A stretch of DNA of 64,000 bases from Amycolatopsis balhimycina FH 1894 (GTDB taxonomy: Bacteria > Actinomycetota > Actinomycetes > Mycobacteriales > Pseudonocardiaceae), in assembly GCF_000384295.1 (NCBI RefSeq), contig NZ_KB913037.1, positions 3,954,649 through 4,018,648 of the forward strand. Direction: 5' to 3'. Within the stretch, counting starts at the first letter, position 1; every line of letters starts with the position of its first letter. The notes beneath the pieces are model-generated. The model was not told where the DNA came from. It worked only from the letters and a program-made list of their open reading frames with translations, and made no database searches. Of the stretch, positions 6,936-12,054 are shown piece by piece. The position numbers and the translations under genes are program-made.

Positions 6936-9125
6936 TCACCGCGCCGGCGCCGGGACCTCGGCGAGCCCGGTCAGGGCTTGCGGCAGCGGGTTCCGGTGCA
7001 GGACGCCGAGGCGCTGCGTCGCGCGGGTCAGCGCGACGTAGAGCTCCGCCGCGCCGCGGGGGCCGTCGGCGAGGATCCGGTCGGGGTCCACGACCAGGAC
7101 GGCGTCGTACTCCAGGCCCTTCGTCTCGGACGCTGTCACCGCGCCCGGCACGTCCGGCGGCCCGATCACGACGCTGGTGCCTTCGCGGCCGGCTTCCTCA
7201 CGAACGAACTCCTCGACGGCCGCGGCCAGCTCGTCGCCGGTGACCCGCCGCGCCCACGGCCGGACGCCGGACGCGCGGACCGACTCCGGCGGCCGGACGT
7301 CCGGGGCGAAGCCGGCGAGCACCGCGGCAGCGACGGCCATGATCTCCGCCGGGGTGCGGTAGTTCACCGACAGCGAACGGTAGACCCAGCGGCCCGCCAC
7401 ATACGGGTCCAGCATCGAGCCCCACGCCCTCGCCCCGGCCTCCGAGCGGCGCTGGGCGAGGTCGCCCACCACCGTGAAGGACCGGCCGGGGCAGCGCCGC
7501 ATCAGTGCCCGCCAGTCCATTTCGGACAGTTCCTGGGCCTCGTCGACCACGACGTGCCGGTAGGTCCAGTCCCGGTCCGTGGTGGCGCGCTCGACGAGGG
7601 TCCGGGTGTCGGTCTCGACGAAGCGGTCGGCGAGGTCCTCGGCGCCGAGCAGGTCGCTGGCGATCAGGCCGATGTCCTCGTCGACGTCCTGCCGCTCGAT
7701 GAGGTTGTCCAGCACGTGCGCGGCGTACGCGGCCTTGGCCCGGCGTTCCCGTTCGGCGGCGCGCTCGGCCGCCCGGTCGGCGGTCTTGTCCCGGCCGAGC
7801 AGATCGATCAGCTCGTCGAGCAGCGGCACGTCCGACACCGTCCACGCGTCGCCTTCGGTGCGGGCCAGCGCATCGCCGGCGCCGGCCGCGCGCAGCCGTT
7901 CGGGCGACGAGTACAGCTGCGCCAGCAGGGTTTCCGGGGTCAGGATCGGCCAGAGCTCGTCGAGCGCCTTGGTGAACGCCTGGTCGGCGATGAGATCCTT
8001 CAGCAGTTCCGCCCGGAAGTTCTCCCATTCTTCACGGTCTTCGCGACGCAGCCAGCCCCGCCCGATCCGGCCCATCGCCCGTTCGGTCAGCACGTACGTG
8101 ACGATGTCGGTGAACACCGCGCGGGCTTCGTTGTGCGCCAGCCCGCTGTCCCGCGCCTCCTGCCGGGCCCACTCCGCGGTCTCGGCGTCGATCCGCACGG
8201 TGACCTCCCGCAGCTGGATCGGCACGGGCTCCGCCGGCAGCCGTTGCCGGTCGGCGATGGCCGCCGCGAGCACGTCCAGGATCTGCCGCGATCCCTTGAG
8301 CCGCGCGGCTTCCGGCGCGTCCTCGGCCGTGACGCGCAGGCCGGGCACGAGGTCACCGGTCGTCATGAACACGACGTCGGTCTCGCCGAGTGACGGCAGC
8401 ACGCGGCCGATGTGGTTCAGGAACGCCGGGTTGGGCCCGACGACGAGCGCGCCGTGGCGTTCCATCCGCTCCCGCTGGGTGTAGAGCAGGTAGGCGACGC
8501 GGTGCAGCGCCACCACCGTCTTCCCGGTGCCCGGGCCGCCTTCGATCACCAGCACGCCCGGGTGGTCGAGCCGGATGATCTCGTCCTGCTCGGCCTGGAT
8601 CGTCGCCACGATGTCGCGCATGCCTTCACCACGCGGCGCGTTGACGGCCGCGAGCAGCGCGGCGTCACCCTGCGCCTCGTCGCCCGGACGGCCGAGCACC
8701 TCGTCGGTGAAGTCGACGACCTTCCTGCCGTGCGTATGGAACTGCCGACGGCGGCGCATGTTCTCCGGATTCGCGCCGGTGGCGGTGTAGAACGGCCGCG
8801 ACGCCGGCGCCCGCCAGTCGAGCAGCACCGGTTCGTGGTCGTTCTCCTCGTCGAAGAGCCCGATCCGGCCGATGTAGCCGGTTTCCCCGGAAACGGCGTC
8901 CAGCCGGCCGAAGCACAACCCGTTGTCGACGACGTCCAGCCGTCGCACCTCCCGGCTCAGCGTGCGCACCCGGACGTCCCGTTCCATGGCACCGAGGTCG
9001 TTGCCGCCCAGCGCCGCCTGGTACTCACCCCGCACGCGTTCCCGCTCGGCGTCGAGCCGCGTGTAGAGCCCGGCGACGTACTCCCGTTCGGCGTGCAGTT
9101 CGGTTTCGTGTTCCTGAACTGTCAT
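6936..9125 (-). CDS. helR: HelR, HelD-type helicase-like RNA polymerase protection protein
   Basis: This 729-residue protein belongs to the UvrD/Rep-like superfamily 1 branch that contains HelD and HelR. It starts with a charged coiled-coil (residues 1-65), which in HelD proteins enters the RNA polymerase secondary channel. A family block follows (DEENDHEPVLLDWRAPASRP), then Walker A GGPGTGKT at 196-203, the late motif SETKGLEYD and motif VI YVALTRATQRL. HelR proteins displace rifamycins from RNA polymerase and confer tolerance (known for Streptomyces and Mycobacterium abscessus). The ATG follows GAGGGGAAC, 9 bp after the rox stop, so the two are coupled. Operon context and the upstream RAE favour HelR over a housekeeping HelD. 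Confidence 0.88.
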   Translation of the reverse strand: MTVQEHETELHAEREYVAGLYTRLDAERERVRGEYQAALGGNDLGAMERDVRVRTLSREVRRLDVVDNGLCFGRLDAVSGETGYIGRIGLFDEENDHEPVLLDWRAPASRPFYTATGANPENMRRRRQFHTHGRKVVDFTDEVLGRPGDEAQGDAALLAAVNAPRGEGMRDIVATIQAEQDEIIRLDHPGVLVIEGGPGTGKTVVALHRVAYLLYTQRERMERHGALVVGPNPAFLNHIGRVLPSLGETDVVFMTTGDLVPGLRVTAEDAPEAARLKGSRQILDVLAAAIADRQRLPAEPVPIQLREVTVRIDAETAEWARQEARDSGLAHNEARAVFTDIVTYVLTERAMGRIGRGWLRREDREEWENFRAELLKDLIADQAFTKALDELWPILTPETLLAQLYSSPERLRAAGAGDALARTEGDAWTVSDVPLLDELIDLLGRDKTADRAAERAAERERRAKAAYAAHVLDNLIERQDVDEDIGLIASDLLGAEDLADRFVETDTRTLVERATTDRDWTYRHVVVDEAQELSEMDWRALMRRCPGRSFTVVGDLAQRRSEAGARAWGSMLDPYVAGRWVYRSLSVNYRTPAEIMAVAAAVLAGFAPDVRPPESVRASGVRPWARRVTGDELAAAVEEFVREEAGREGTSVVIGPPDVPGAVTASETKGLEYDAVLVVDPDRILADGPRGAAELYVALTRATQRLGVLHRNPLPQALTGLAEVPAPAR

Positions 9126-9134
9126 AAGTTCCCC

Positions 9135-10565
9135 TCAAGCCTTCTTCGGTGCGCCGAACCAGGTCGACAGCCGGTCGAGCAGTTCCGCCTGGTCTTCGCC
9201 GGCCCAGGCCACGTGGCCGTCCGGCCGCACCAGCACCGCGGGCGCGTCCAGCTCTTCGCTGACGTCGACGACGTGGTCGACCCGGTCCGCCCAGCCCTCG
9301 GCCGAGAGCCGTCCGGTCTGGTCGAGCAGCAGGCCGCGGCCGCCGTGCATCAGGTCGTACAGCCGGCCGCGCTTCAGCGCGACGTCCCGCAGCCGCCGGC
9401 CGACCAGGTCGTGGTCGTCGCCGAAGTCGTAGCGGATCTCGATCCCGACGATCCGGCCGATCAGGTACCGGTTCACCTGCTCGAAGTCCATCAGCTTCGC
9501 CAGCAGCCGGCGCACGGCCTGGGGTCCGGCGTCGGCGCGCATCAGCTCGCCCTGGGCCCGGGTGTTGTCGAGCACGTCGGCGGCCACCGGGTGCCGTTCG
9601 GCCTGGTAGCTGTCCAGCAGTCCGTCCGGTGCCCAGCCGCCGAGCTCGGCGGCCAGTTTCCAGCCGAGGTTCACCGCGTCCTGGAGGCCCAGGTTGAGGC
9701 CCTGGCCACCCAGCGGCGGGTGGACGTGCGCCGCGTCGCCGGCCAGGAACACCCGGCCGTCGCGGTACCGCTCGGCCAGCCGGGTCGCGTCGCTGAAGCG
9801 GGACAGCCACAGCGGGGAATGCACGCCGAAGTCGGTGCCCGCGTACGCCCGCAGCTGCTGCTTGAACTCGTCGAGGGTCGGCGGGACCGAGCGGTCCTCG
9901 GAGACCGACTCGGCGGGCACGAGGACCCGGTACCGCCCGTCCTTGGTGGGCCCGAGCCCGAAGAACTTCTCCGTCTTCCGGATCTCGATCACCTTGGCGG
10001 TCACCTCCTCCGCCGGCACGCCCACTTCCATCTCGCCCAGCAGCGTTTCCTTCCGGGCGGGCTCGCCGGGGAAGCCGATGCCGAGCAGCTTGCGCACGGT
10101 GCTGCGGCCGCCGTCGCAGCCGACGAGGTAGCGCGCCCGCAGCTGCGTGCCGTCTGCCAGCTCGACGGTCACGCCGTCGTCGTCCTGGCTCAGCCCGGCA
10201 ACCGCGCTGCCGGGCCGGATCTCGGCGCCGGCCTCGAGGGCGTGCTCGGTCAGCAGCCGCTGGGTGACGGGCTGCGGGATGCCGAGAACGTAGGCGTGCG
10301 CGCTGTCCAGCCGTTCCGGCCACGGCTTGTCGATGCCGGCGAAGTAGCCCGGCATCTGGAACTGCTTCCCGTTCTCGAGGAACTTCTCCAGCAGGCCACG
10401 CTGGTCCATCAGCTCGATGCTGCGCACGTGCAGGCCGAGCGACCGGACCTCCTTGACCGGCTCCGGCTCCTTCTCCAGCACGAGTACCCGCACGCCGTGC
10501 AGCCGCAGTTCGGCCGCCAGCATCGTCCCGGTCGGGCCGCCACCGGCCACGATCACGTCGATCAT
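9135..10565 (-). CDS. rox: Rox, rifamycin monooxygenase (FAD-dependent)
   Basis: This is a 476-residue class A flavoprotein monooxygenase. The N-terminal Rossmann motif is IVAGGGPTGTMLAAELRLHG. The second FAD region is GDAAHVHPPLGGQGLNLGLQD at about residue 285. A thioredoxin-like C-terminal domain is expected. The pattern SLGLHVRSIELMDQRGLLE and the length match Rox enzymes, which hydroxylate the rifamycin naphthoquinone and linearise the drug. The ATG at 10565 is chosen because AAGGGGATTTCG precedes it, rather than an in-frame upstream extension. It lies 50 bp after rgt and 9 bp before helR. Without this context it could be an aromatic-polyketide hydroxylase; the three-gene setting makes rifamycin the likely substrate. 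Confidence 0.87.
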   Translation of the reverse strand: MIDVIVAGGGPTGTMLAAELRLHGVRVLVLEKEPEPVKEVRSLGLHVRSIELMDQRGLLEKFLENGKQFQMPGYFAGIDKPWPERLDSAHAYVLGIPQPVTQRLLTEHALEAGAEIRPGSAVAGLSQDDDGVTVELADGTQLRARYLVGCDGGRSTVRKLLGIGFPGEPARKETLLGEMEVGVPAEEVTAKVIEIRKTEKFFGLGPTKDGRYRVLVPAESVSEDRSVPPTLDEFKQQLRAYAGTDFGVHSPLWLSRFSDATRLAERYRDGRVFLAGDAAHVHPPLGGQGLNLGLQDAVNLGWKLAAELGGWAPDGLLDSYQAERHPVAADVLDNTRAQGELMRADAGPQAVRRLLAKLMDFEQVNRYLIGRIVGIEIRYDFGDDHDLVGRRLRDVALKRGRLYDLMHGGRGLLLDQTGRLSAEGWADRVDHVVDVSEELDAPAVLVRPDGHVAWAGEDQAELLDRLSTWFGAPKKA

Positions 10566-11982: not shown

Positions 11983-12013
11983 CGTCCTGAGCCGGGGTGT
12001 CCGGCTCAGGACG
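11983..12013 (-). promoter_or_regulatory. Perfect 13-bp hairpin in the rgt leader
   Basis: CGTCCTGAGCCGG (11983-11995) and CCGGCTCAGGACG (12001-12013) pair perfectly around a 5-nt loop. The hairpin lies between the RAE and the rgt start, 20 bp before the GTG. On the minus strand it is followed by AAATATC and no run of T, so it looks more like a leader or attenuator structure than a classical terminator. Confidence 0.7.
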
Positions 12014-12031
12014 ACGATTTTGCGGGACAAC

Positions 12032-12054
12032 GGGGGTCTTGCGGCAAGCCCCCC
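12032..12054 (-). promoter_or_regulatory. Rifamycin-associated element (RAE)
   Basis: This is a 23-bp near-perfect inverted repeat: GGGGGTCTTGC (12032-12042), a central G, then GCAAGCCCCCC (12044-12054), with one mismatched pair. It closely matches the conserved RAE palindrome (core CTTGCGGCAAG flanked by G and C runs) that precedes rifamycin-inactivation genes (rgt, rph, arr, rox, helR) in actinomycetes and is needed for induction by rifamycins. It lies 70 bp before the rgt start. A TATAGC sequence just upstream on the minus strand (12057-12062) is a possible -10 element. Confidence 0.85.

What the first reader, a model, noticed from the sequence alone, without database searches (positions are those of the whole stretch)
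6936..12054. One operon stacks three mechanisms of rifamycin resistance under a single RAE
rgt (drug glycosylation), rox (oxidative ring opening) and helR (removal of drug from RNA polymerase) run in that order on the minus strand with gaps of 50 and 9 bp. The only RAE palindrome seen lies before rgt. Each mechanism is known, and RAE control of single genes is known. A three-tier unit under one element would be an unusually complete inducible response: protect the target, then destroy or mask the drug. Substrate identity for rgt and rox is inferred from context.
Basis: partly seen in the sequence, partly recalled or inferred. Interest (0 to 1): 0.88.

Follow-up and report, generated by a model that had tools for sequence, protein, structure and literature searches.

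The report
Three-gene inducible rifamycin-resistance operon
A soil actinomycete (genus Amycolatopsis) carries three different defences against rifamycin antibiotics in one short operon behind a single drug-response promoter element; each part is known, but this stacked arrangement seems to have been put together within the genus, probably more than once.

Summary
On the minus strand rgt (10616-11962), rox (9135-10565) and helR (6936-9125) lie 50 and 9 bp apart behind one RAE palindrome (12034-12052), the only one in the window. Rox and HelR pass NCBI's curated cut-offs; Rgt does not (497 vs 800 bits), but its relatives have an RAE in front in 73 of 81 cases examined. The RAE sits in a rigid promoter frame (TATA 13 bp before, CANAAT 11 bp after) that the window keeps. 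The genome (an Amycolatopsis) lacks the AHBA marker and has an unaltered RpoB rifampicin region: defence against others' rifamycins rather than self-resistance.

The order rgt-rox-helR occurs in 9 of 80 genus genomes, each with one RAE in front, at two chromosomal places. The Rox tree rejects a single origin (AU p=0.007); the HelR tree does not (p=0.30). Single genes, RAE-rgt-helR and RAE-rox-helR units also exist, so the triad combines known modules. Separately, all 14 genus genomes without a strict RAE have altered RpoB rifampicin regions, while all 13 RAE-bearing genomes tested (of 66) do not. Induction, co-transcription and Rgt's substrate remain inferred.

The parts
12062..12065 (-). TATA block starting 13 bp upstream of the RAE (part of the conserved TATAGCGCAC)
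   Evidence: Same offset in 72 of 73 RAE-bearing rgt leaders
12034..12052 (-). RAE palindrome GGGGCTTGCCGCAAGACCC
   Evidence: one mismatch to GGGGCTTGCNGCAAGCCCC (own site L008; consensus letters recalled)
12042..12047 (-). TTGCCG inside the RAE, possible -35 of the downstream promoter (inferred)
   Evidence: Sequence; in mycobacterial helD the RAE overlaps the -35 of promoter 2 (PMC10719064, passage)
12017..12022 (-). CAAAAT, probable -10 of the downstream promoter (inferred)
   Evidence: CA[GAC]AAT at the same offset in 69 of 73 leaders
11983..12013 (-). 13-bp leader hairpin between the probable -10 and the start codon; feature of the triad-A lineage, role unknown
   Evidence: The stretch 11950-12030 folds at -39.2 kcal/mol, z -4.8; stable fold in 7 of 7 triad-A leaders
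10616..11962 (-). rgt: GT-B type glycosyltransferase, rifamycin as acceptor inferred (448 aa, with a C-terminal tail of about 40 residues)
   Evidence: NCBIfam Rgt 497 bits, cut-off 800 not met; RAE-linked relatives
9135..10565 (-). rox: rifamycin monooxygenase (476 aa)
   Evidence: NCBIfam NF033145 885 bits, cut-off 800; 71.5% identical over 473 residues to S. venezuelae Rox 5VQB
6936..9125 (-). helR: class II HelD/HelR RNA polymerase recycling motor (729 aa)
   Evidence: NCBIfam HelR_2 1356 bits (cut-off 1100) and HelD_MYCSM 1344 bits (cut-off 1051); 1145 bits to M. smegmatis HelD 6YXU over residues 3-727

Best explanation
An operon for defence against rifamycins made by other organisms. One RAE promoter in front of rgt is expected to fire when rifamycin is present and to give one rgt-rox-helR mRNA. 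HelR frees RNA polymerase from bound drug so that transcription can go on; Rgt glycosylates the drug (at the C-23 hydroxyl in the tested enzyme) and Rox hydroxylates the core and linearises it, which lowers the drug level. Shown here: gene identities (rgt only to its RAE-linked group), spacing, one RAE, conserved promoter frame, recurrence in 9 of 80 genus genomes, unaltered rifampicin region of RpoB, no AHBA marker. Inferred: induction by rifamycin, co-transcription, substrate of Rgt, the division of labour.
For: Gene order and gaps. One RAE per unit in 9 of 9 triads (window, the other eight). Rox and HelR cut-offs met. RAE with fixed spacings in front of 73 of 81 rgt genes and in front of solo rox and solo helR genes of the genus and of two genes that look like rifampin phosphotransferase by eye: the RAE marks rifamycin-resistance genes. 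No AHBA marker in G000 and in 7 of the 8 other triad genomes. Identical rifampicin region of RpoB in all 9 triad genomes, equal to the sensitive sequence as I recall it. The helD paralog (72%) and rox paralog (66%) elsewhere in the genome have no RAE, so the operon copies look like the dedicated inducible ones. Reaction types of Rgt and Rox: PMC7283461, passages.
Against: Rgt misses the curated Rgt cut-off and is not far from glycopeptide glycosyltransferases (GtfB 428 bits). No expression data. The consensus scan that found no promoter or terminator inside the operon also failed to find the RAE promoter itself (0 sites in 6800-12300), so weak or unusual internal promoters are not excluded. 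A RAE can stand in front of helD in an organism with a resistant RpoB (Nonomuraea; PMC8655204, passage), so a RAE alone does not prove need.
Confidence: 0.77

Rival explanations
1. The glycosyltransferase acts on something other than rifamycins (for example a glycopeptide or another ansamycin), so only rox and helR are rifamycin genes.
For: Rgt scores 497 bits against a cut-off of 800; glycopeptide enzymes GtfB, GtfA and GtfD are its closest solved structures; the genome has three tandem genes of the same superfamily at 9.22 Mb, glycopeptide type by guess only.
Against: RAE in front of 73 of 81 relatives. The cut-off is strict: eight RAE-linked relatives from other genera score 495-523 and an RAE-linked protein of a neighbouring branch 669; none of the ten scored reaches 800. 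The tandem paralogs fall on a separate starred branch (quick tree, midpoint root).
Confidence: 0.12
2. Self-resistance of an ansamycin producer.
For: Rifamycin producers do encode Rox (PMC7283461, passages); one triad genome (G061) has an AHBA marker.
Against: No AHBA marker in G000 and in 7 of the 8 other triad genomes; the 11 genomes with the strongest AHBA marker have no strict RAE and an altered RpoB region.
Confidence: 0.03
3. Not one operon: rox or helR is mainly transcribed from its own promoter, and the RAE only induces rgt.
For: In other genomes rox and helR each have their own RAE. The consensus scan is too insensitive to exclude internal promoters, since it missed the RAE promoter as well.
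Against: Gaps of 50 and 9 bp in the window; rgt-rox gaps of 27-50 bp in the 7 triad-A loci, with rox-helR gaps also short (in five of the seven the helR start was extrapolated and is not a start codon, so those values are approximate). No second RAE at up to 3 mismatches in any triad region.
Confidence: 0.08

Closest known systems
RAE-controlled rox and helR of Streptomyces venezuelae (Surette et al. 2022; Koteva et al. 2018; papers not held, known through passages of PMC10719064 and PMC7283461)
   Same: Same element, same enzyme families, same expected trigger
   Different: There rox and helR are reported as two separate RAE hits; here both stand with rgt behind one RAE
RAE-rgt-helR units (a HelD-family gene within 700 bp after rgt in 51 of 80 Rgt loci)
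   Same: rgt first, a HelD-family gene behind it, usually a RAE in front
   Different: No rox between; 46 of the 52 downstream HelD genes (A. vastitatis triad included) are only 36-43% identical to this HelR, and their class was not tested
RAE-rox-helR units of the genus (8 of 80 genomes)
   Same: RAE, rox, helR in that order; helR 78-82% identical
   Different: No rgt
Rgt1438 (Spanogiannopoulos et al. 2012, not held; NCBIfam NF000354, which I take to be built around it)
   Same: Same glycosyltransferase family by profile
   Different: The window protein scores 497 of the required 800 bits and seems to belong to a neighbouring group; the Rgt1438 sequence itself was not compared

Membership tests
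RAE unit | 19-bp palindrome upstream of the first gene | tested here: met
   12034-12052, one mismatch to the recalled consensus
RAE unit | Conserved promoter frame around the RAE (TATA at 13 bp before, CANAAT at 11 bp after; a regularity found here) | tested here: met
   Both present in the window; 72 and 69 of 73 leaders
RAE unit | Induction by sub-inhibitory rifamycin that needs the palindrome | not testable with these tools
   Needs expression data
Rox rifamycin monooxygenase | Curated equivalog score (NF033145, 800 bits) | tested here: met
   885.5 bits
Rox rifamycin monooxygenase | Linearises rifamycin | not testable with these tools
   71.5% identical to S. venezuelae Rox
HelR (class II HelD) | Curated score (NF041258, 1100 bits) | tested here: met
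   1355.6 bits. The RAE-less paralog L002 also passes with 1261 bits, so the score does not tell an inducible HelR from a housekeeping HelD
HelR (class II HelD) | Primary-channel (PCh) loop with acidic tip | tested here: met
   Alignment to M. smegmatis HelD runs through the loop; tip DED by eye where Msm has DDED. No structure was predicted
HelR (class II HelD) | Frees RNAP from rifamycin and gives resistance | not testable with these tools
   Needs biochemistry
Rgt rifamycin glycosyltransferase | Curated equivalog score (NF000354, 800 bits) | tested here: not met
   497.5 bits
Rgt rifamycin glycosyltransferase | RAE linkage of the group (supporting, not defining) | tested here: met
   73 of 81
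Rgt rifamycin glycosyltransferase | Glycosylates rifamycin | not testable with these tools
   Needs an enzyme assay

The most novel reading that the evidence does not exclude
RAE units sense rifamycin through RNA polymerase itself and not through a dedicated drug-binding regulator: where RNAP has a resistant pocket, the promoters can no longer respond and the RAE regulon decays. The triad would then be an alarm driven by the drug's own target, with rgt, rox and helR gathered behind it at least twice.
Probability: 0.25. Interest if true: 0.78.

Novelty: new variant of a known kind. Interest (0 to 1): 0.52.

Why it matters
It is a compact natural example of several drug-defence layers placed under one inducible switch, with relatives that show the possible intermediate steps (single genes, two pairings, triad). 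That makes the order of assembly and the benefit of stacking testable. The link between RAE and an unaltered RpoB pocket gives a handle on a question that the literature states as open: what responds to rifamycin at the RAE (PMC12802891 and PMC10719064, passages).

Tried and rejected
Leader hairpin as a general attenuator: rejected as general. The stretch between -10 and start folds at -26 to -31 kcal/mol in 7 of 7 triad-A leaders (z -1.6 to -3.4 against letter shuffles), but the median over all 81 rows is -12.8; L047 (-31.7) and L078 (-23.6) are exceptions outside the lineage, and L012 and L198 are the same genome. It is a lineage feature of unknown role.

Remnant of a lost rox RAE in the rgt-rox gap: a 9-base likeness in the window's gap caught the eye, but the other triad-A gaps do not have it; dropped.

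Single origin of the triad: the Rox tree rejects triads A and B as one clade (AU p=0.007), and the two groups lie at different places: flanks like the window's are found at 6 of 6 other triad-A loci and at neither of 2 triad-B loci. The HelR tree does not reject one clade (p=0.295). 'Assembled twice' is likely, not shown; replacement of rox inside an existing triad would also fit.

Association of the triad with the AHBA marker: none (1 of 9 against 19 of 71, Fisher p=0.44).

Class of the 36-43% HelD proteins beside rgt in other genera: the family scan failed on a stop codon and was not repeated for them, so it is untested.

Confidence in one operon was lowered slightly on checking, because the promoter scan that found nothing inside the operon also missed the RAE promoter.
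Full report
Observation. Three genes on the minus strand, rgt 10616-11962, rox 9135-10565 and helR 6936-9125, are separated by 50 and 9 bp. The only RAE in the 64 kb, allowing three mismatches, is at 12034-12052. A consensus scan found no promoter-like or terminator-like site in 6800-12300, but it did not find the RAE promoter either, so it is weak evidence.

Identities. Rox scores 885 bits on NCBI's rifampin monooxygenase equivalog (cut-off 800), and HelR 1356 on HelR_2 (cut-off 1100) and 1344 on HelD_MYCSM (cut-off 1051). 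Rox is 71.5% identical over 473 residues to the crystallised S. venezuelae enzyme. HelR aligns over residues 3-727 with M. smegmatis HelD, including the primary-channel loop, whose acidic tip is DED here by eye and DDED there. Rgt scores 497 bits on the Rgt equivalog, under the cut-off of 800. That cut-off is strict: of ten relatives scored, eight RAE-linked ones from other genera reach 495-523, an RAE-linked protein of a neighbouring branch 669, and the second RAE-linked glycosyltransferase of this genome 392. In a quick tree of 117 rows the window's Rgt stands among RAE-linked proteins, while three tandem paralogs of its own genome fall on a separate starred branch. Rgt's substrate therefore rests on RAE linkage and not on a close match to a tested enzyme.

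Promoter. Of 81 Rgt genes examined (80 loci plus the window), 73 have an RAE within 160 bp upstream and 8 do not. TATA starts 13 bp before it in 72 of 73, CA[GAC]AAT starts 11 bp after it in 69 of 73, and 68 have both within the tolerance used. Among 68 distinct RAE sites in fetched genus loci, 66 have the TATA, 54 have both and 2 have neither. The window has TATA at 12065-12062 and CAAAAT at 12022-12017. In mycobacterial helD the RAE overlaps the -35 of the downstream promoter (PMC10719064, passages), which fits TTGCCG inside the palindrome here. The RAE thus looks like part of a rigid composite promoter.

Where the triad occurs. The window's genome is a single 10.86 Mb contig. Its genus is Amycolatopsis: G078 of the same genus has the triad on a contig of 411,806 bp, the length and place of the A. 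vastitatis contig that holds L012. Putting together the places of the three genes over the 80 genus genomes held (strict E-values), rgt-rox-helR stands in 9: G000, G078, G047, G041, G069, G024, G016 (triad A) and G066, G061 (triad B). Each has one RAE at up to 3 mismatches in the fetched stretch, in front of rgt (eight, the window). Eight further genomes have rox-helR without rgt, each with one RAE in front of rox. Among the 79 Rgt loci outside the genus (the best 80 of 159 relatives were kept), none has rox right behind rgt and one (Solihabitans) has rgt-helR-rox; in 51 of all 80 a HelD-family gene follows rgt within 700 bp. In a scan of 390 family genomes, 19 of the 30 matches outside the genus were fetched with about 1.5 kb on each side (one is cut by its contig end): 9 have helR behind rgt and none shows rox.

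Assembly. Flanks like the window's are found at all 6 other triad-A loci and at neither triad-B locus. Triad-A Rox is sister to two solo RAE-rox genes (99/95); triad-B Rox falls with 7 of the 8 rox-helR pairs, with weak support (94/86 and less). One common clade of triads is rejected (AU p=0.007). In the HelR tree triad B groups with 7 of the 8 pairs (99/95) and triad A with a solo helR (93/95), but one clade is not rejected (p=0.295). The union tested was defined by gene order, though a quick Rox tree had been seen. Two assemblies are likely but not proven.

Who carries it. An AHBA-pathway marker (TIGR01454) is absent from G000 and from 7 of the 8 other triad genomes. RpoB of all 9 triad genomes has an identical rifampicin region, which matches the sensitive sequence as I recall it. 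The operon thus looks like defence in non-producers. The genome also has a HelD (72%) and a Rox (66%) paralog without RAE and a second RAE-linked Rgt-like gene.

A wider pattern. By a strict pattern, 14 of 80 genus genomes have no RAE. Eleven of these are exactly the 11 with the strongest AHBA marker, 375 bits or more (Fisher p=3.5e-11, ignoring kinship). In all 6 of these 11 where marker and rpoB lie on one contig they are 29-38 kb apart, while in 5 RAE-bearing genomes with a weaker AHBA marker (G003, G026, G053, G057, G061) they are over 1 Mb apart. That fits rifamycin clusters, beside which rpoB lies in A. mediterranei (PMC7283461, passages). All 14 have altered RpoB rifampicin regions: 12 share one block of changes, G005 has part of it, G027 has others. 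All 13 RAE-bearing genomes tested equal G000 (9 triads and 4 AHBA-bearing ones, out of 66 RAE-bearing genomes; not a random choice). The strict pattern misses degenerate RAEs (it missed the G016 triad and the second own site), so the upstream stretches of rox and helD were checked in 12 of the 14 (G005 and G027 gave no such genes): none scores above the best of 30 letter shuffles, while a positive control did (26 of 27). The 12 probably form one clade, so independent losses may be as few as two or three, and a Nonomuraea with resistant RpoB keeps a RAE (PMC8655204, passage). The simple reading is that a resistant target makes the regulon useless; the bolder one is that RNAP is the sensor.

Literature. 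Searches of the held open-access library (several listings capped, e.g. 25 of 242 and 15 of 26 papers shown) and passages of seven papers (PMC8655204, PMC10719064, PMC12802891, PMC13246000, PMC7283461, PMC7749160, PMC13214531) showed no rgt-rox-helR unit. The primary papers on RAE, Rgt and HelR are not held, so earlier mention there cannot be excluded.

Verdict. A real, recurrent operon of known parts; new variant of a known kind.

Noticed in passing
G000:C1:2647578-2647596 (L195:4579-4597): Second RAE of the genome, with the same frame (TATA before, CACAAT after), in front of another Rgt-like glycosyltransferase (392 bits to NF000354).
   Followed up: partly
80 genus genomes: All 14 genomes without a strict RAE have altered RpoB rifampicin regions, and 11 of them carry the strongest AHBA marker; all 13 RAE-bearing genomes tested (of 66) have the unaltered region.
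   Followed up: partly
window:11983-12013: A 13-bp leader hairpin, stable in all 7 triad-A leaders; its flank GCAAAA is complementary to UUUUGC beside the probable ribosome-binding site, so a transcript starting upstream of the RAE could hide the start of rgt.
   Followed up: partly
L224, L235, L240 (RAE at 1500): RAE in front of a monooxygenase only about 40% identical to Rox: a possible further RAE-linked resistance enzyme.
   Followed up: no
L234, L251 (RAE at 1500): RAE in front of a protein that looks like rifampin phosphotransferase, judged by eye.
   Followed up: no
G075:C1:339290 and G075:C2:797508: Two rpoB-type matches in one genome, both with the altered rifampicin region.
   Followed up: no
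window:10616-10750: Rgt has a C-terminal tail of about 40 residues (448 aa, against 407 in G047, G041, G069, G024 and G016), with an Ala/Gly/Ser-rich stretch.
   Followed up: no
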